NCBI RefSeq assembly: GCF_014202755.1
Contig: NZ_JACHHK010000002.1
Coordinates: 186,001 to 250,000 of the forward strand
Direction: 5' to 3'
From: Catenisphaera adipataccumulans
GTDB lineage: Bacteria > Bacillota_I > Bacilli_A > Erysipelotrichales > Erysipelotrichaceae
DNA: 64,000 bases
Of this stretch, positions 2,809-30,603 are shown one piece after another. The notes under the pieces were generated by a model. That model was not told where the DNA came from. It did no database searches and saw only the letters and a list, made by a program, of their open reading frames with translations. Numbering within the stretch: the first letter of the stretch is position 1; every line of letters starts with the position of its first letter. The translations under genes were made by a program, and so were the position numbers.

Positions 2809-5190
2809 ATGGCCAAAGAAAAAACAAATCATATCGTTATTGCGAAACAAGTACAAAAACGGTTCGATACCGTCTGGGATGACTATCAGATCCTCTTTTT
2901 TCAGGCTCCGTGCGGATACGGAAAAACGGTTTCCGCCAAAATGCTTCTGAAAAAGAAAAACGTCAGCTATCGCAGCTGCCGTCAGCCGCGCAGCCTGCTG
3001 ACGCCGCTGGCACCGGGAATTGAAGCCGTGATCATCGATGATCTGCAAGATCTGGAAAATCAGAATGCGGTTCCTGCCATCGATGCGATGATCAAAACCA
3101 ATCCGGAGGTGCATTTCTTGTTCCTCAGCCGCGGGGCACTGCCCGACTTTTTGATCCCGTATCAAATGAGTAATACACTGGCCCAGTTTGAACCACAGAT
3201 TTTTATTCTCGACCGTGATGACTTCGGTAAGTGTATCACCGACTATGGTCTGCATATCTCGCAGACAGATATTGACCGGATGTACAAGGAAGCCAACGGC
3301 TGGCCGGCCGCCGTCACATTGGATATGGGCCGCCTGCGCGAAACGGGCCATTTTTCCGGAGAAGCACGCATGCAGATCTATCAGGATGCCTATGCCTATA
3401 TCAATAAAGAAGTTTTCCGACGTTTTGACCGGAACATGCGGACCTTCTTACTGCGCCTGGTCCCGTTTGAATCATTCAGCGCCGAAATGGCGCACATCGT
3501 CTGCCCGGATACCGATGTACGGGCATACATCAACCGCATCTTCCGGGAAACGAGCATGTTCGTGTTCAAGGACGTGGACGAGTACCGGCTGTTGGAGCCG
3601 TTCCGTGACTTTCTGCATTGGATCATGTACCAAGAATGTACACAGGAAGAAATCAAGGAAATTTACTATCGGGCTGCTTTGTGCTTTGAACTGCAGGGCG
3701 ATTATCTGAATGCGCTGAAGTGCTATGAAAAGATTCATAATACCCAGATGATTTCTGAATTGTTGATCAAATATTCCGGACAGCGCCCGGATTTTGGTTA
3801 TTACTATGATCTATTAAAATATTATCGGCAGCTGCCGGAAGAAACGATCAAAAATAACGCAAAACTCATCTGCAGTATGAGCATGTTGGAGTCGCTGGAC
3901 GGCGATTACGAACGCGGCAGCTACTGGTATCAGGCACTGGTTAAATATGAGCACCGCCTCGATCCCGACGATCAGGAACGGATCGAAGCCGGCCGCTGCC
4001 TTTATTATTTAGACTTTGCTTTGCCGCAGCACAATCATAAAGATTTGGTCAACGGCGCCCTGCGTGCGGCTGCCTATGCCAAGGGAACCGGACAGGAGAT
4101 GCCGGTCTTCAGTCTGACCGGCCTGCAGCCAGGTTTTTTAAGCGGCTCCAAAGATTTATGCCCGCTGCTGGAGGAACTGATGTCTATCGGGGAAGATAAA
4201 AAAGCGTATTTTGACCGGGTCTTCGGAAAGCATGGCTTTGAATTGATCCGGGTCCTGCAGTGTGAATATCGTCTGGAATGCGGCGAAGATATTTCGGACC
4301 GTCTGCTTATGGGCATATCGACCATGCATGAAATGCAGCGGCAGGACCGGCCGGACATCGAATTTGCGACCATCGGGATCTTGATCCGTTCTCAGATCGC
4401 CAAAGGCGATATTGTCGGTGCCCTGAATCTGATGCAGAACGTATATGATGATTTCCATGAACGCGGTCTGAAGGTCTATATGGGCAATCTGAAAGCTCTG
4501 CGCTGTCAGCTGTACTTATATCACAATGAGATCGAAGCAGCCAAAAGCTGGCTGAAAACTTCACCGGACAGCCTGACAAGTTTTAAAACACTCTATCGTT
4601 TCCAATATCTAACCAAAGCCATGATTCAGATCACCTTAGGAAAGATCGACGAGGCGCTGATCCTTTTAGCGCAGGTTTACCAATTTGCGGAAAACGGTGA
4701 CCGGACCATCGATCGGATCCAGATCCTTACTTTGATGGCCATTGCCCGGTATCGCTGGAACAACACCCTATGGAGACAGAATCTCAGCGATGCGCTGGAA
4801 GCAGCGGAACCCTATCAGCTGGTTGCGGTGATCGGCCGGTACGGCACTGCCGTCGTACCGCTGCTGGAGGAACTGAAGTGGAAAGGCAGAAAGTCATTCT
4901 ATGATGCGGTAAAAGAAAATGCCCGCAAGTATGCGGTCCATTATCCGCACTTTATGGAATCACCGAAAGCACAGCCAAAGATCCACCTGACACCGATGGA
5001 ACAAAACGTCCTGCGCCTGGTCTGCCAAGGCATGCGCAATCAAGAAATTGCCGATCTTCTGAACGTCCAGTTATCAACGGTCAAGACCCATGTCTATCAC
5101 ATCATGCAGAAGCTGCAGGTGAAAAACCGAACCGCTGCCAGAGAAGCCGCGGAACAATATCATTTATTGGATCTCAATGAAAATCAATAA
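2809..5190 (+). CDS. MalT-like LuxR-family ATP-dependent transcriptional regulator
   Basis: A 793-residue regulator with MalT architecture. A P-loop near residues 33-41 (APCGYGKTV) starts a STAND-type NTPase. A long helical TPR-like middle follows, and a LuxR DNA-binding domain lies at about 725-785 (LTPMEQNVLRLVCQG, NQEIADLLNVQLSTVKTHV). In MalT, ATP and an inducer sugar drive oligomerisation and activation. GAGGAG precedes the ATG. Being 21 bp behind the orphan PTS IIC suggests it senses or controls that transporter. The P-loop keeps GK but replaces the first Gly of GxxxxGK[ST] with Pro-Cys, so ATP use should be tested. A hairpin terminator follows. Confidence 0.82.
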   Translation: MAKEKTNHIVIAKQVQKRFDTVWDDYQILFFQAPCGYGKTVSAKMLLKKKNVSYRSCRQPRSLLTPLAPGIEAVIIDDLQDLENQNAVPAIDAMIKTNPEVHFLFLSRGALPDFLIPYQMSNTLAQFEPQIFILDRDDFGKCITDYGLHISQTDIDRMYKEANGWPAAVTLDMGRLRETGHFSGEARMQIYQDAYAYINKEVFRRFDRNMRTFLLRLVPFESFSAEMAHIVCPDTDVRAYINRIFRETSMFVFKDVDEYRLLEPFRDFLHWIMYQECTQEEIKEIYYRAALCFELQGDYLNALKCYEKIHNTQMISELLIKYSGQRPDFGYYYDLLKYYRQLPEETIKNNAKLICSMSMLESLDGDYERGSYWYQALVKYEHRLDPDDQERIEAGRCLYYLDFALPQHNHKDLVNGALRAAAYAKGTGQEMPVFSLTGLQPGFLSGSKDLCPLLEELMSIGEDKKAYFDRVFGKHGFELIRVLQCEYRLECGEDISDRLLMGISTMHEMQRQDRPDIEFATIGILIRSQIAKGDIVGALNLMQNVYDDFHERGLKVYMGNLKALRCQLYLYHNEIEAAKSWLKTSPDSLTSFKTLYRFQYLTKAMIQITLGKIDEALILLAQVYQFAENGDRTIDRIQILTLMAIARYRWNNTLWRQNLSDALEAAEPYQLVAVIGRYGTAVVPLLEELKWKGRKSFYDAVKENARKYAVHYPHFMESPKAQPKIHLTPMEQNVLRLVCQGMRNQEIADLLNVQLSTVKTHVYHIMQKLQVKNRTAAREAAEQYHLLDLNENQ

Positions 5191-6993: not shown

Positions 6994-7563
6994 TCACTCT
7001 GCCCAGATAATATGTTGATCTTTGATTTCTTTGATCGGCGCCAACGTATACACGTCGTAGCCATGTTTGTCTAAATATGCCTGGCCGTTCTGAAACTGCT
7101 TGCCGATCACGATGCCCACGCCGTCGATGACGGCACCGGCCTGCCGGGCCAGTTCTTCAGCGCCTTTGAACGCTTCGCCGTTGGCCAGAAAGTCATCGAT
7201 GAACAACAGATGTTCGCCCGGTTTTAAGTATTCTCTTTCCACGCAGATCGAATACGCCTTGCGCTTGGTAAAAGAGAACACCTTCGCAAACAGCGGATCG
7301 GACATGGTGTTAGGCTGGGCCTTCTTGATGATCAATAAAGGCACGCCCAGCCGCAGCGCACACGCATAGGCCGGTGCGATGCCGCTGGATTCAATGGTCA
7401 CGACCTTATCGATCGGTTTTGCCTTGAAATAGTCGTAAAACGCCTGACCGATCTCATCCATCAAGGCACAGTCCACCTGATGGTTGATGATCTGATCGAC
7501 CTTGACAACTTCATCGGAAACGCATTTGCCGTGCGTTTCAATGGCTTGTTTCAGTTTTTCCAT
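6994..7563 (-). CDS. xpt: Xanthine phosphoribosyltransferase
   Basis: A 189-residue protein, the usual length for Xpt. It starts MEKLKQAIETHG and carries the PRPP-binding loop as LLFIDDFLANGEAFKG, plus the TIESSGIAPAYACALRLGVP segment typical of Xpt. It salvages xanthine to XMP, which GuaA (encoded further on at 25483) then aminates to GMP. The start at 7563 has AAGGAGG upstream and lies 26 bp inside the end of the CBS-domain gene, so the two are coupled. No purine riboswitch is expected or seen here because the gene is internal to an operon. Confidence 0.93.
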   Translation of the reverse strand: MEKLKQAIETHGKCVSDEVVKVDQIINHQVDCALMDEIGQAFYDYFKAKPIDKVVTIESSGIAPAYACALRLGVPLLIIKKAQPNTMSDPLFAKVFSFTKRKAYSICVEREYLKPGEHLLFIDDFLANGEAFKGAEELARQAGAVIDGVGIVIGKQFQNGQAYLDKHGYDVYTLAPIKEIKDQHIIWAE

Positions 7564-8683
7564 GGGCTTCCTCCTTGATCTGAACGATCGTCTGTCCGAT
7601 GCGGTGGTTCTTGACTTCCTTGACATGAACGGTCATCAGCGGCAGATCCAGCTCAAATTGGGAACCGTCCTCCGGAATGTGACCATATTCCGTCAGGATA
7701 TAACCATTGAACGTTTCATCGTCTTCATCGCCCAGTTCCAAACCGAGCGCTTCTTCGACCTCTCCCAATTCTGCCGTACCGTAGATACGCCACTGGTTGG
7801 CATCGATCTGCTGGATCTCCTTGGGCTCGATGACATCGTCTTCTTCGTAGATCTCACCGACCAGACTTTCCATGATGTCGTGCAGCGTGACGATGCCGGT
7901 CATGCCGCCGTATTCATCCACCACGATGCAGAAATAATTCTTGCGGTTGGTCATCTGATGAAATAAAGCATCAATTTTGGTGTTTTCCGCCGCAAAAAAC
8001 GGTTCATCAAACGCATTGTTGATGATCGTATCCTGATCGACATCTTCATCCATCCGGAAATAATCCCGGGTATCGAGGATCCCGATGATATCGTCTTCGT
8101 CCTCACGGCAGACCGGATACATCGTATGGCGGTTGTCGTGAATGATCTGCCGCCATTCTGCGGTCGTTTGATCCAGCGATAAAATGACCACTTCCGAACG
8201 ATGGGTACAGATTTCCTCAATGGCGGTATCGCCCATCTCAAATACATTCTGGATCCATTTTTTCTTCGGCGTATCAATATCGCTGCCCTCACTGAGCATT
8301 TCCCGGATGTCCTCTTCACGGACTTCTTCCTTGACGATGGTCGGGACCCGTACTGGCAGGGCCAGGATGCGCAGCACCGGACGAACGATCCGATACAGCC
8401 GATGGACACCGGCTTGATGATCGCCGCTGTTGGCCCAGCGCTTCGGCAGCTGTACCGCAAACAAGATATATAAGTAAGCGGCAATGCACATTTCTGCCCA
8501 CATGTTCCAAGGCAGCGTCGCCGTGGCTGCCATGGTGACAAACGCCCCGAAGATGACCGCCCAGCGGGTTTCTGCCAGGATCGCATTGCGCACATCGATC
8601 TCTTCATCGTCGATGTACTGCTGCATGGCCGAACACAAGGCGCCGATCAGAAAAGTCACCAGGTACAGAAAAAGTATATACAA
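7538..8683 (-). CDS. CNNM/CorC-HlyC-type membrane protein with CBS pair
   Basis: A 381-residue protein with a hydrophobic N-terminal part of about 90 residues (MYILFLYLVTFLIGAL and a second cluster near WAVIFGAFVTMAA). It continues into a CBS pair (VVILSLDQTTAEW, HTMYPVCREDEDDIIGIL, YFCIVVDEYGGMTGIVTL) and a C-terminal CorC/HlyC domain (ELDLPLMTV). Such proteins are linked to magnesium or sodium transport and were first called hemolysins. The membrane part is shorter than the usual CNNM domain. It heads a two-gene operon with xpt. Confidence 0.85.
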   Translation of the reverse strand: MYILFLYLVTFLIGALCSAMQQYIDDEEIDVRNAILAETRWAVIFGAFVTMAATATLPWNMWAEMCIAAYLYILFAVQLPKRWANSGDHQAGVHRLYRIVRPVLRILALPVRVPTIVKEEVREEDIREMLSEGSDIDTPKKKWIQNVFEMGDTAIEEICTHRSEVVILSLDQTTAEWRQIIHDNRHTMYPVCREDEDDIIGILDTRDYFRMDEDVDQDTIINNAFDEPFFAAENTKIDALFHQMTNRKNYFCIVVDEYGGMTGIVTLHDIMESLVGEIYEEDDVIEPKEIQQIDANQWRIYGTAELGEVEEALGLELGDEDDETFNGYILTEYGHIPEDGSQFELDLPLMTVHVKEVKNHRIGQTIVQIKEEAHGKTETSH

Positions 8684-25482: not shown

Positions 25483-27024
25483 ATGCCAGATAAAATTATT
25501 GTTTTAGATTTTGGAAGTCAATATAATCAGTTGATCGCACGCCGGATCCGTGAGTTCGGTGTGTATTCGGAGCTGCATTCCAATGAGATGTCAGCCGATG
25601 AGATCCTCGCTTCCGGCGATGTGAAGGGAATTGTGTTCAGCGGCGGACCGAACAGCGTCTATGAAGACGATGCGCCGAAGTGCGATCCGCGCATTTTTAC
25701 GTGCGGGCTGCCGATCTTAGGCATTTGCTACGGCATGCAGATGATCCACTATGAACTGGGCGGCAAGGTGCAGTCCAGCACCGAACGGCAGTACGGCCGG
25801 ACGGAAATTGAGATCACCCAGGACAGTCTGTTGTTTGACGGTCTGCCGAAAAAACAGACGGTCTGGATGTCGCATGGTGACAAGGTGTCAGAGCTGGCTC
25901 CTGGTTTTGTCAAGGTCGCTTCCTCAGAAACTTGTCCGTTTGCGGCCGCCGAAAATAAAGAAAAGAACATGTATACGCTGCAGTTTCATCCGGAAGTGCG
26001 TCACAGCGAATACGGCAATGATATCCTTCGTAACTTTGTGTTCAAGATCTGCAAGGCTCAGAACAACTGGACGATGAAAGACTTCATCACGACCAAGACC
26101 AAGGAAATTCAGGAAAAGGTCGGCAAGGACAAGGTGCTGCTCGGTTTATCGGGCGGCGTGGATTCCAGCGTCGTTGCCGCCTTGCTTCATCAGGCGATCG
26201 GTGATCAGTTGATCTGTATGTTTATCGACCATGGTCTGCTGCGCAAGGGCGAAGGCGAAAGCGTCATGGAGACATTCGGCAAAAACATGAATGTGAACCT
26301 GGTGAAGATCGATGCCAAGGATCGGTTCATGAAGAAGCTGAAAGGTGTATCCGATCCGGAGAAAAAGCGCAAGATCATCGGCAACGAGTTTGTTTATACA
26401 TTTGATGAAGAAGTGAAGAAACTGACGGCCGGCGAAGAAATCAAATGGCTGGCGCAGGGCACGTTGTATACGGATGTGATCGAAAGCGGCACGAAGACGG
26501 CGCAGACGATCAAGTCGCATCACAATGTCGGCGGTCTGCCGAAGGATATGCAGTTTCAGCTGATCGAACCGCTGAATACCTTGTTTAAGGATGAGGTCCG
26601 TGCTTTGGGTGAAGAACTGGGCCTGCCGGAAGAAATGGTATGGCGCCAGCCGTTCCCAGGACCGGGCTTAGGGATTCGCATCTTAGGCGAGATCACGGAT
26701 GAGAAGCTGAAGATGGTGCAGGACAGCGATTATATTCTGCGCGAAGAGATCGCCAAGGCCGGCCTGCAGCGGGATATCTGGCAGTATTTCACCGCGCTGA
26801 CGAATATGCGCAGTGTCGGTGTCATGGGCGATCAGCGGACGTATGATTATGCGATCGCGATCCGTGCTGTCACCAGCATCGACGGTATGACGGCAGACTG
26901 GGCACGCATTCCGTTTGAGGTCCTGGATAAGGTATCCAACCGGATCGTTAACGAGGTCCCGCATGTCAACCGCGTACTGTATGACATCACTTCCAAGCCG
27001 CCGGGAACGATCGAATTTGAATAA
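25483..27024 (+). CDS. guaA: GMP synthase (glutamine-hydrolysing)
   Basis: A 513-residue, full-length enzyme. It has an N-terminal glutaminase domain (GICYGMQ nucleophile, QFHPEV), an ATP pyrophosphatase domain with SGGVDSSVV and a C-terminal dimerisation domain ending PPGTIEFE. It aminates XMP to GMP, downstream of Xpt. AAAGGAGA precedes the ATG. The 3' end is a known integration target for tyrosine-recombinase islands in many bacteria. Here it is intact, and its stop region and terminator are repeated downstream. Confidence 0.96.
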
Positions 27025-27100
27025 ACTAAATTCCTGCAAGTCCTATGAATTCAAGACTTGCAGGGATTTTTTTGTGTTCGTTGGGTACATTTTGGGTACA
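27010..27100 (+). repeat. att-like copy 1: guaA 3' end, terminator and right-arm repeats
   Basis: The guaA stop region (GAATAAACTAAAT) is followed by the terminator hairpin and then two TTGGGTACA repeats at 27081-27089 and 27092-27100, 11 bp apart. The hairpin and stop region recur at 36509-36562, and the 9-mers recur at 36380-36399 and 38698-38717. The layout fits a tyrosine-integrase core with arm-type sites, the guaA-proximal end (attL) of an island. Confidence 0.7.
27033..27072 (+). terminator. guaA terminator
   Basis: Perfect 10-bp stem CCTGCAAGTC / GACTTGCAGG with a 12-base loop, then GATTTTTTT. Confidence 0.9.
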
Positions 27101-27124
27101 GATTTATTATGCCGAAGCAGTTGT

Positions 27125-27589
27125 TCAATCTGGATTCTTCGGATGAAGGCTTATCTGATCCACGAAAGCTTTTTCCAAAGCTTCCTTTCGTTCTTTCACG
27201 TTCTTGATCTTATCCGCTTTCCGGATATCTTCCTCATATTTCTGATATCGCTGGAACCATGAGTGCATCAGCATCAGCGAATTGAAACGGATGGCAACAC
27301 AGTCATTGCCATCATCATCCTTCGTCTCGAAGAGTGCGCCGCCGAAATTCCGGTACATCTGAAAAAGCGAATGCATTGCGGAGATTCCGTTGACTTCTGA
27401 ATTTTTCAGCACTTCAACATTAACACCCAGAGCGTCAGCAAGTGCCTGCAGCGATGAGGGTTTCGGATTCCGCCTGCCGGATTCATAGGCACGTATGTAA
27501 GACTCGCTGACACCGATTTCGTCACCGAGCTGCTTTAAAGTCATTCCCCGCGCTTTGCGAAGACGCCTGATATTTTCGCCAACAGTCAT
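27125..27589 (-). CDS. XRE-family helix-turn-helix regulator of the island
   Basis: A 154-residue protein with an N-terminal Cro/CI helix-turn-helix (IRRLRKARGMTLKQLGDEIG, VSESYIRAYESGRRNPKPSS, LQALADALGV). It has a C-terminal helical region ending in charged helices (YEEDIRKADKIKNVKERKEA). ATG 27589 has GGAGGT upstream; the longer frame is unlikely. It lies at the left edge of the guaA island, directly inside the attachment site, and points towards guaA. The position and type suggest it controlled excision or replication genes of the element, now broken. Confidence 0.82.
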   Translation of the reverse strand: MTVGENIRRLRKARGMTLKQLGDEIGVSESYIRAYESGRRNPKPSSLQALADALGVNVEVLKNSEVNGISAMHSLFQMYRNFGGALFETKDDDGNDCVAIRFNSLMLMHSWFQRYQKYEEDIRKADKIKNVKERKEALEKAFVDQISLHPKNPD

Positions 27590-27654
27590 GATGTACCTCC
27601 TTCGCCTGCCTTTCATTGGCAGTAATGACATGAACAGCATGAAATGATTTCTAA

Positions 27655-27884: not shown

Positions 27885-28197
27885 ATGGCATGTGAGAGAA
27901 AGGCGAGATTCCGTCATAACACGATTGCGTTCTGGCTGAGCGATGAGGAGAATAAAGCTGTAGAGGCGAGGATTATTTTATCCGGTCTTCCGAAAGGGGG
28001 AATATTACCGACAGAGTATTCTCGGTCAGCAGATTCAGATTAATGGAGGTCGTAATCAATCAGCAAAGCTTGCCGCAGAATTGGAGAGTCTGTACCAGCG
28101 CGCATCGGAGCACAAAGATGCAGCGGCAATGGCTGAGCTGATACAGGTTCTTTCAGAACTTCTTGCGGTTTGGAAGGCAGGGGAGGACAACGAATGA
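27885..28197 (+). pseudogene. MobC/ribbon-helix-helix-like accessory protein, frameshifted
   Basis: ATG 27885 opens a frame (RFRHNTIAFWLSDEENKAVE, then LSGLPKGG) that stops at 28043. The next frame continues the same protein (EYYRQSILGQQIQINGG, then a helical tail ending WKAGEDNE) to the stop at 28197. One extra G in the GGGGG run near 28000 explains the break. The SDEE then SGL then EYYRQ layout is that of small MobC-like or RHH proteins on mobile elements. Its stop overlaps the ATG of the following primase gene. Confidence 0.65.
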
Positions 28198-30038
28198 ACA
28201 TTGGAAAAGAAATGGCCGCTTCCGGATCGGCTGTTGGCGCAGCCGGGAAGCGGTCACCTGTAAATAACATTTACAAAAGCATCATAGCAGACCGATCCCG
28301 CAGCTTCAACGGATATCCATCCGTACTGTCAGGAAAAACGGAGGAAGGAGCTGCCATGAATAAAAGGTATTTTCAAGCCTTAATGCATCGGGAACCAGCT
28401 GAAGGCGAGCAGAAATATATTTTCTTTGTCGACAGCACTGATCTTGCTATGAATATCATCGCTGCAGGATATCAGGCGGTCGTACTTCAAGAAGGGATTG
28501 AGGCATATTTCTCACCGGAGGAGCTGACTTCCTATATGGACAGCATTCAATTCCACGGTCTGTCTCTCACATCCTACCGGTATGTTCCTGCCTGTTCTTC
28601 CAAGAGGATTAATGATCTTCTTGAAGATTACTTCCGTGGAAATTATTTGCAGTGGTGTGAGGGCTGGAAGCTTTTCAAAGATAAGGAATACCTGGCAAAT
28701 ACAGGAGCAGAGGAAGAGATAAAAGGCCTGCTCAGCCAATTCATTGAGCGGCATGAAAGAAAGCCGAAGCCGCAGACCAATCTGGATGCATACCATGTGC
28801 TTTCAAAAGACGGCGAGCCTGTCGGCGTTCTGGACATTGAGATCGTAGATGACATCCTGCATACGGTTCCGTCTTTTGTCATCGGCGCAACTCCATTTCT
28901 TTATGAGAATGGCGTCTATCGGGAAGATATCGGCTGTGTGCGTCTGAAATCAATCATTCAGAAGTATCTTTATCGCAGGTTTATTAAGAGCCCGCCCCTG
29001 AAGCGGATCTGCGACCTTCTGATCAGTCAGAGCAGCGTGCAGAAACATTTTTCAGATCTTTACAATTACCCGCTGGAATGGGTGAATTTCCAGAACGGCT
29101 TTACGATCCAATCGAACAGAAATTAATTCCTCATGATCCGAAATATCTATCCATCAATCAGATCCCACATGAGTTTCATCCTGAAAAGAAAGAAGAGACC
29201 ATGCTGGGCGGTGCGGTGACAAAACATTATCTTGCAGATTCGCTTCCGAATCCGGTGGAGCAGCAGATGCTGTGGGAGTACCTCGGTTACTGCATGACAG
29301 CTGATACAAAGATGCAGAAGTTTCTCATGCTGATCGGCGAAGGCGGGACGGGTAAGTCAGTTGTCATTCACCTGTTTCAGAAAGTGATCGGAATGAAGAA
29401 CTGCTCCTGCATCTCTCTGCAGGATCTGAACAGACGATTCTATGCAACTGGACTTTTCGGAAAACTTCTCAATGCCTGCGGTGACATTCCGTGTAAAGCA
29501 CTAGACAGCATCGATGTGCTGAAGAAAGCAGTAGGCGAAGACAGTCTGATCTTTGAAAAGAAATGTCAGGATGCACTGCAGTTTACCAGTCATGCCAAGC
29601 TCCTGTTTTCATCGAATGGAATGCCTGACAACGTTGAAGAAAAAGAAACTGGATCGGGAGATTGATTTTACAATCGTGATGGCGATGGACGCGCTTCATG
29701 AACTCTACGAAAGAGGAGCTTTGATCGAGAGTGAGAACAGTCGAAGATGCGTGGAAGAAGCGAGAAAATCTGCAGACAGCGTGATGGCCTTTATCAGTGA
29801 AAGGCTGATGGAAAAGAGAGGGTGCTGGCTGAATCGGAGCAGAGCCTACGAGGCTTATGAAGAGTATTGCAAAGACAACGGAAGGCAGCCGCTCGGTAAA
29901 GCTAAATTTATTCCGGAGATGAAACGAAAAGGATATAAAGCGGTCAAGAATCAGGGAATTTTCAAATATAAAGACACGGCTCTCTGTGAGGAAGAATTTC
30001 ATCCGATTGCGGAAGATGCTGATGTTCCGTTCCAGTAA
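28194..30038 (+). pseudogene. P4/D5-family phage-type primase-helicase, broken
   Basis: Three frames together encode one replication protein. The first (to 29126) has a Toprim-like YIFFVDSTDLAMNIIAAGYQ segment and a D5_N-like middle. The second (about 29100-29665) holds the helicase Walker A LIGEGGTGKSVVIHLF. The third (to 30038) holds the C-terminal MAMDALHELYERGAL and the DNA-binding end. A one-base loss near 29100 and a deletion near 29640, joining NVEEKE directly to KLDREIDF, break it. Such proteins start replication of integrative elements. It is probably non-functional. Confidence 0.8.
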
Positions 30039-30068: not shown

Positions 30069-30378
30069 GGGGCACTAGGGGCATGAATCCGAAAAATCAT
30101 GAAAGGAAATTCGTAGTTAATAGGACAAAACAGCGCGTTTGAAGAGGGTTAGTTTGGAAATATTGCAAAGCTCTCGTGAGTTAAAAAATGATGCCCCTTA
30201 TGCCCCCAACAATCATTAAAGAAATTTTATTTGCGATAGGGGCATCTGGGGCATGAAAAATGAAGTTGCTGAATTGTTAAAAGGCCAGAGGATTAAAAAC
30301 ACAATAGTTTTAAGCAGGAGTGCAATCGGATCCGATCGTACTGAATCAAATTATAAAAAGCAATGCCCCTCATACCCC
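30069..30378. repeat. Origin-like cluster of four GGGGCAT-pair elements
   Basis: Four 16-bp elements, each two GGGGCAT-type heptamers 2 bp apart, start at 30069 (+), 30191 (-), 30239 (+) and 30363 (-). Orientation alternates and spacing is nearly symmetrical (122, 48, 124 bp). The middle two flank an AT-rich stretch. The position just behind the primase-helicase is where such elements keep their replication origin. No convincing gene lies between 30039 and 30463. Confidence 0.6.
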
Positions 30379-30463: not shown

Positions 30464-30575
30464 AAGCCAGAATGACATTGTCGCCATATTTTTTCAGTTC
30501 TTCAGGCAGATGCTCTAAGGCATGTTCTCCGAAATAAAGTTTTGTCGGGGCGCAGTAAGAAAAATCTCCAAGCAT
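30464..30575 (-). pseudogene. Iron-containing alcohol dehydrogenase, 5' fragment
   Basis: The minus strand encodes MLGDFSYCAPTKLYFGEHAL and continues to GDNVILA, the first 37 codons of the dehydrogenase encoded intact at 59024-60193, then stops matching. Over 112 bp the two copies differ at one base. It would be the last gene of the island redox operon. The break joins it to the origin-like region of the replication module, so a deletion or recombination event removed the rest. Confidence 0.85.
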
Positions 30576-30603
30576 ATTGAAATCCTCCGTTTCGTATTGA
30601 AAA

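What the first reader, a model, noticed from the sequence alone, without database searches (positions are those of the whole stretch)
30069..30378. Symmetrical GGGGCAT repeat cluster next to a primase remnant: possible origin
Four 16-bp elements, each two GGGGCAT-type heptamers separated by 2 bp, alternate in orientation (+,-,+,-) with spacings 122, 48 and 124 bp around an AT-rich centre. The symmetry and location behind a P4/D5-type primase-helicase fit a replication origin or an operator for a silencing protein of the element.
Basis: partly seen in the sequence, partly recalled or inferred. Interest (0 to 1): 0.62.

Follow-up and report, generated by a model that had tools for sequence, protein, structure and literature searches.

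The report
Decayed replication origin of mobile element
The repeat cluster is the leftover replication start site of a small, now broken mobile element, and the same layout, spelled with different letters, sits behind the matching replication helicase in dozens of phages and elements, including one origin already annotated in a well-studied Streptococcus phage.

Summary
Four GGGGCATNNGGGGCAT elements lie at 30069(+), 30191(-), 30239(+) and 30363(-), far beyond chance. They start 30 bp after the stop of a frameshifted D5/SF3-type replication helicase, within a degraded integrative element between guaA and a truncated alcohol dehydrogenase gene. The closest relative (79% identical, intact gene) has GGGGCAAAAGGGGCAA in + and - orientation, 123 bp apart, 24 bp after its stop. 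Scanning the 350 bp behind 67 relatives for this layout gives 26 at or above score 30, against 1 of 1393 control windows. The annotated origin of Streptococcus phage Sfi21 has the same anatomy. A search of viral contigs with the GGGGCA layout alone found 15 loci; 12 have an initiator helicase next to it. The feature is best read as the iteron origin recognised by the helicase's C-terminal winged helix: inverted iteron pairs flanking AT-rich DNA, here as two tandem units. It is orphaned: the local helicase is broken and the resident prophage helicase has a different motif. It is a new member of a known kind (SaPI/Sfi21-type origins). The operator reading is not supported.

The parts
30069..30084 (+). 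iteron pair 1 (GGGGCAC-TA-GGGGCAT)
   Evidence: 30 bp after the helicase stop, as in L024 (24 bp)
30085..30190 (.). spacer of unit 1, 64% A+T
30191..30206 (-). iteron pair 2 (GGGGCAT-AA-GGGGCAT)
   Evidence: exact match
30207..30238 (.). central AT-rich stretch (78% A+T), junction of the two units or alternative opening site
30239..30254 (+). iteron pair 3 (GGGGCAT-CT-GGGGCAT)
   Evidence: exact match
30255..30362 (.). spacer of unit 2, 66% A+T
30363..30378 (-). iteron pair 4 (GGGGTAT-GA-GGGGCAT)
28356..30038 (+). pseudogene of the D5/SF3 initiator helicase (DUF5906 core, Pox_D5 winged helix), split over three ORFs by a frameshift near 29100 and, near 29640, a deletion of about 24 residues plus a frameshift
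27885..28043 (+). remnant of a NikA-like (mobilization-type) protein
   Evidence: homologous to L024:2342-2668, which matches NikA-like PF21983
27667..27878 (+). C-terminal fragment of a tyrosine integrase
   Evidence: local alignment to the L024 integrase (weak, no Pfam hit of its own)
27125..27640 (-). XRE-family regulator of the element
   Evidence: HTH_3, E 1.2e-18; similar to the L024 XRE protein

Best explanation
30069-30378 is the replication origin of a decayed integrative element (integrase, NikA-like protein, D5 helicase). It consists of iteron pairs: two ~7-bp half-sites repeated with a 9-bp period, in inverted orientation around AT-rich DNA, immediately behind the gene of the cognate self-loading initiator helicase. 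In an intact element the helicase's C-terminal winged-helix domain would bind each tandem pair. Two oppositely oriented pairs would load two hexamers facing each other, the AT-rich stretch would open, and replication of the excised circle would start. Here two such +/- units lie in tandem. The local helicase is broken, so the origin should be silent. Shown: location, geometry, conservation of the geometry behind homologous helicases, identity of geometry with the annotated Sfi21 origin, association of the motif with the helicase in viral contigs. Inferred: binding by the winged helix, hexamer loading, AT-rich opening, the tandem-duplication history, inactivity.
For: Closest intact relative L024 has the same pair with one base changed (GGGGCAA), at the same place and spacing (123 vs 122 bp). 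Layout scan of 350 bp behind 68 relatives: 39 beat all 60 dinucleotide shuffles. Stricter scan: 26/67 post-stop windows >=30 against 1/1393 controls. Period mode 9 bp, first site mostly 0-40 bp after the stop. The annotated Sfi21 origin has the same anatomy, P = 1/201, and is reported as an origin (PMC6356513). A layout-only search of viral contigs gives 15 loci, 12 with an adjacent initiator helicase. PMC7581432: SaPI Rep recognises, through its C-terminal domain, iterons directly downstream of its gene, and the Cch2 C-terminal domain binds such repeats.
Against: No binding or replication experiment. About half of the relatives show no detectable layout directly behind the gene, so some use another place or layout. 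Only one close relative (L024) has sequence beyond the gene, and its contig ends 4 bp after the second pair, so the doubled unit could not be checked there.
Confidence: 0.92

Rival explanations
1. Operator or silencer: the sites bind the element's XRE regulator or another repressor controlling the helicase or integrase genes.
For: An XRE gene is present (27125-27640), and tandem inverted sites also occur in operators.
Against: The sites lie behind the helicase, not at a promoter of the regulator; no similar sites lie near the XRE gene in the window or in L024. The layout recurs behind helicases in unrelated phages and elements, and a layout-only search recovers helicases.
Confidence: 0.03
2. 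Integrase arm-type binding sites near the right end of the element.
For: The sites lie near the element's right junction, and the L024 integrase has an arm-binding domain.
Against: In phages such as Sfi21 the layout is in the replication module about 9 kb from the integrase gene; in viral contigs it goes with helicases. Only one of 15 layout hits (L106) had an integrase and no recognised helicase among the ORFs checked.
Confidence: 0.02
3. Transfer origin (oriT) of the mobilizable element, used with the NikA-like protein.
For: A NikA-like remnant is present upstream.
Against: The layout is widespread in phages and goes with the helicase; a relaxase gene was not found in L024, whose contig is short.
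Confidence: 0.01
4. Chance or slippage-derived G-rich repeats without function.
For: Short G-rich repeats can arise by slippage.
Against: Far beyond shuffles and conserved in position and geometry in relatives.
Confidence: 0.01

Closest known systems
Replication origin of Streptococcus thermophilus phage Sfi21 (302-bp non-coding region, phage-encoded resistance)
   Same: Directly behind the D5-type helicase/'primase' gene; tandem pair (AGTTACTTAGTTAC, period 8) with an inverted copy 85 bp away and an AT-rich core between
   Different: Different letters, one clear +/- unit instead of two, and an intact phage instead of a decayed element
SaPI origins (SaPI5 Rep, SaPIbov1 Rep) of staphylococcal satellites
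   Same: Self-loading Rep helicase whose C-terminal domain recognises iterons directly downstream of its gene; SaPI5 Rep is of the D5_N/Primase_Cterm class (PMC7581432)
   Different: Here no primase domain was detected, the letters differ, and the element carries a NikA-like protein and no packaging genes were seen; SaPI sequences were not compared directly
Putative SCCmec origin bound by the Cch2 helicase
   Same: D5_N-class helicase binding direct repeats behind its gene through its C-terminal domain (PMC7581432)
   Different: Three AAGTG iterons and serine recombinases; binding shown in vitro only
Phage P4 origin with the alpha primase-helicase
   Same: Helicase initiator that recognises short repeats (general knowledge; PMC7145576 describes P4's fused helicase-primase)
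   Different: P4 alpha has a fused primase and its origin parts are not placed directly behind the gene (from memory); neither L024 nor the window shows a detectable primase domain

Membership tests
Initiator-adjacent iteron origins (SaPI/Sfi21 type) | Short repeats directly downstream of the initiator helicase gene | tested here: met
   First pair 30 bp after the stop; same in L024
Initiator-adjacent iteron origins (SaPI/Sfi21 type) | Repeats in oppositely oriented sets flanking AT-rich DNA | tested here: met
   + - + - order, spacers 64-78% A+T against 52%
Initiator-adjacent iteron origins (SaPI/Sfi21 type) | Helicase with a C-terminal winged-helix DNA-binding domain | tested here: met
   Pox_D5 domain in the window ORF (E 1.2e-7) and in L024 (E 3.6e-8)
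Initiator-adjacent iteron origins (SaPI/Sfi21 type) | The initiator binds the repeats | not testable with these tools
   Needs gel shift or footprint
Initiator-adjacent iteron origins (SaPI/Sfi21 type) | The region drives replication when the initiator is supplied | not testable with these tools
   Needs a replication assay
P4-type primase-helicase replicons | Primase domain fused to the helicase | tested here: not met
   No primase domain found by Pfam in the window ORFs or in the intact L024 protein
Phage satellites (SaPI/PICI) | Packaging-interference genes and helper dependence | not tested
   Only remnants remain here; L024 is a short contig with XRE, integrase, NikA-like protein and helicase

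The most novel reading that the evidence does not exclude
The geometry is a general code. D5/SF3 helicases, and possibly DUF927 helicases, across phages, satellites and integrative elements would use one conserved layout whose letters drift with the helicase's winged helix: two tandem-repeat pairs of 8-10 bp period, inverted, about 70-125 bp apart and right behind the gene. Origin and initiator could then be matched from sequence alone, and some elements, including this one, carry doubled origin units.
Probability: 0.5. Interest if true: 0.55.

Novelty: new member of a known kind. Interest (0 to 1): 0.4.

Why it matters
It turns a guess about a repeat cluster into a well-supported origin and gives a simple rule (layout fixed, letters variable) that can locate replication origins of many phages, satellites and integrative elements whose origins are unannotated. 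The rule also works in reverse: a search with the layout alone recovers the initiator gene. It offers a natural series for studying how a winged-helix domain and its origin sites diverge together.

Tried and rejected
Exact search for the central 64-bp arrangement found it only in this genome among 195 family genomes, and in no viral contig. Protein pattern scans with the remnant and with L024 gave no viral relatives. The DNA search of relatives gave one spurious short match, L057. An alignment of the two halves shows no homology between the spacers beyond shuffles, so a duplication, if any, is old. No direct repeat linking guaA to the right junction was found, so the element's ends are not defined. 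The AlphaFold model of L024 (four-sequence alignment) has mean pLDDT 40 and was not used. The SaPI origin papers themselves are not held, so the SaPI comparison rests on PMC7581432. The operator, integrase-arm, oriT and chance readings were considered and rejected (see rivals).

Full report
OBSERVATION. The four elements are real and exactly where described: 30069(+), 30191(-), 30239(+), 30363(-), with 1, 0, 0 and 1 mismatches to GGGGCATNNGGGGCAT and start-to-start spacings of 122, 48 and 124 bp. At <=1 mismatch nothing else in the window matches. Forty Markov windows of the same size yielded one such hit in total. The 2-Mb genome has six, four of them here. The centre is 78% A+T and the longer spacers are 64% and 66%, against 52% for the window.

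CONTEXT. The cluster starts 30 bp after the stop of a broken gene (28356-30038) with a DUF5906 helicase core and a Pox_D5 winged-helix C-terminus, closest in PHROGs to phrog_864 'DNA primase'. It is split over three ORFs. Alignment to an intact relative shows a frameshift near 29100 and, near 29640, a deletion of about 24 residues plus a frameshift. Upstream lie an XRE gene (27125-27640, -), an integrase C-terminal fragment and a NikA-like remnant, in the gene order of the intact relatives L024/L025: XRE, small HTH protein (90 aa in L024), tyrosine integrase, NikA-like protein, helicase. The remnant sits between the 3' end of guaA (stop at 27024) and a truncated iron alcohol dehydrogenase. It is a decayed integrative element, probably mobilizable (inference from the NikA-like protein). 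No primase domain was found in the window ORFs or in the L024 protein. PMC10061031 notes that helicases of this kind are often mis-annotated as primases.

The proposed refutation was absence of such repeats behind homologous primases. The only close relative with sequence past the gene is L024, a Lachnospiraceae MAG (79% identical over the helicase core). It has GGGGCAAAAGGGGCAA at 4610(+) and 4733(-), 123 bp apart, 24 bp after the stop of an intact 607-codon ORF; the contig ends 4 bp later. More distant relatives show the same layout with other letters, for example GGGCAAAAGGGCA in L054, GGTGCAAAAGGTGCAA in L046 and GTGTCAC repeats in L047.

STATISTICS. I scored the 350 bp after the stop for the best tandem pair with an inverted copy. 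Of 68 loci (the window included), 39 beat all 60 dinucleotide shuffles (about one expected). The median score was 29.4, against 19.4 far downstream and 19.6 upstream. A stricter version (period 8-10, inverted copy 45-150 bp away) gave 26 of 67 post-stop windows at or above 30, against 1 of 1393 other windows of the same loci. Periods cluster at 9 (21), 8 (9) and 10 (5) of 39, and the first site lies mostly 0-40 bp after the stop. Site similarity follows C-terminal similarity weakly but significantly (Mantel r 0.14, p 0.0045). Some of these loci are related to each other, so they are not fully independent.

POSITIVE CONTROL. Sfi21 (NC_000872) carries a deposited feature 'origin of replication, 302 bp non-coding region, phage inhibitory sequence' directly behind its putative primase. 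The same scan finds AGTTACTTAGTTAC with an inverted copy 85 bp away and an AT-rich core between (P = 1/201). [quoted passage not shown]

REVERSE TEST. Searching 2.9 million viral contigs with only the layout GGGGCA-N3-GGGGCA, a spacer and the inverse gave 15 loci. Adjacent to the motif, 9 encode DUF5906/D5_N helicases by Pfam and one a DUF927 helicase; PHROGs adds two more primase/helicase genes. That is 12 of 15. In some of these (L100, L104, L105) the layout overlaps the end or middle of a long open frame, so position relative to the gene varies. DUF927 is the family of SaPIbov1 Rep and Cch (PMC7581432), so a second initiator class may share the layout (one case only).

MECHANISM. [quoted passage not shown] By the same logic the window's helicase would bind each GGGGCAT pair, with inverted pairs loading two hexamers facing each other on AT-rich DNA. 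Location and geometry are shown here; binding, loading and opening are inferred.

DOUBLED UNIT. L024 shows that the first + and - pair at about 122 bp recurs behind an intact gene, and L060 carries a recent tandem copy of a whole unit (spacings 103, 58, 106), much like the window's 122, 48, 124. L054 also has +-+-. The window is therefore better read as two tandem units. The spacers of the two halves are no longer alike, so a common origin of the halves is inferred from layout only.

STATE TODAY. The origin is orphaned. The local helicase lacks a conserved segment, and the only other DUF5906 helicase found in the genome (a prophage-like gene, L096:5256-7529) has its own motif behind it, CAAGGTGTATCAAGGT. 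It should therefore not fire unless a related element enters the cell (inference).

NOVELTY. This is a new member of a known kind. The general layout rule, and its use in reverse to find initiators, is the more interesting product; I could not establish whether it has been stated in this form before.

Noticed in passing
L096:5256-7529 and 7530-7640 (G000 contig C1): A second, intact DUF5906 helicase in the same genome, in a prophage-like region, with its own iteron pair behind it (CAAGGTGTATCAAGGT and an inverted copy 75 bp away; P about 0.01).
   Followed up: yes
L101:3-1982 (IMGVR_UViG_3300043776_000372): The same GGGGCA layout lies 62 bp behind a DUF927 helicase, the other class of SaPI/SCC initiators, which hints at one layout shared by two helicase classes.
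   Followed up: partly
L060, minus strand about 1415-1110: A complete origin unit (TGACGGAATTGACGG and its inverse) is tandemly duplicated almost unchanged behind the helicase gene.
   Followed up: yes
window 30490-30585 (-): Only the N-terminal part of an iron-containing alcohol dehydrogenase remains at the right side of the element, so the insertion or later decay truncated a host gene.
   Followed up: partly
L106:4251-6340, L103:1400-1524, L110:9665-9763: Three viral contigs carry the GGGGCA layout without a recognised initiator helicase among the ORFs checked; L106 has an integrase about 700 bp away.
   Followed up: no
window 27081-27102: A short direct repeat TTGGGTACATTTTGGGTACA just after the guaA terminator, possibly part of an old attachment or integrase-gene end.
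   Followed up: no
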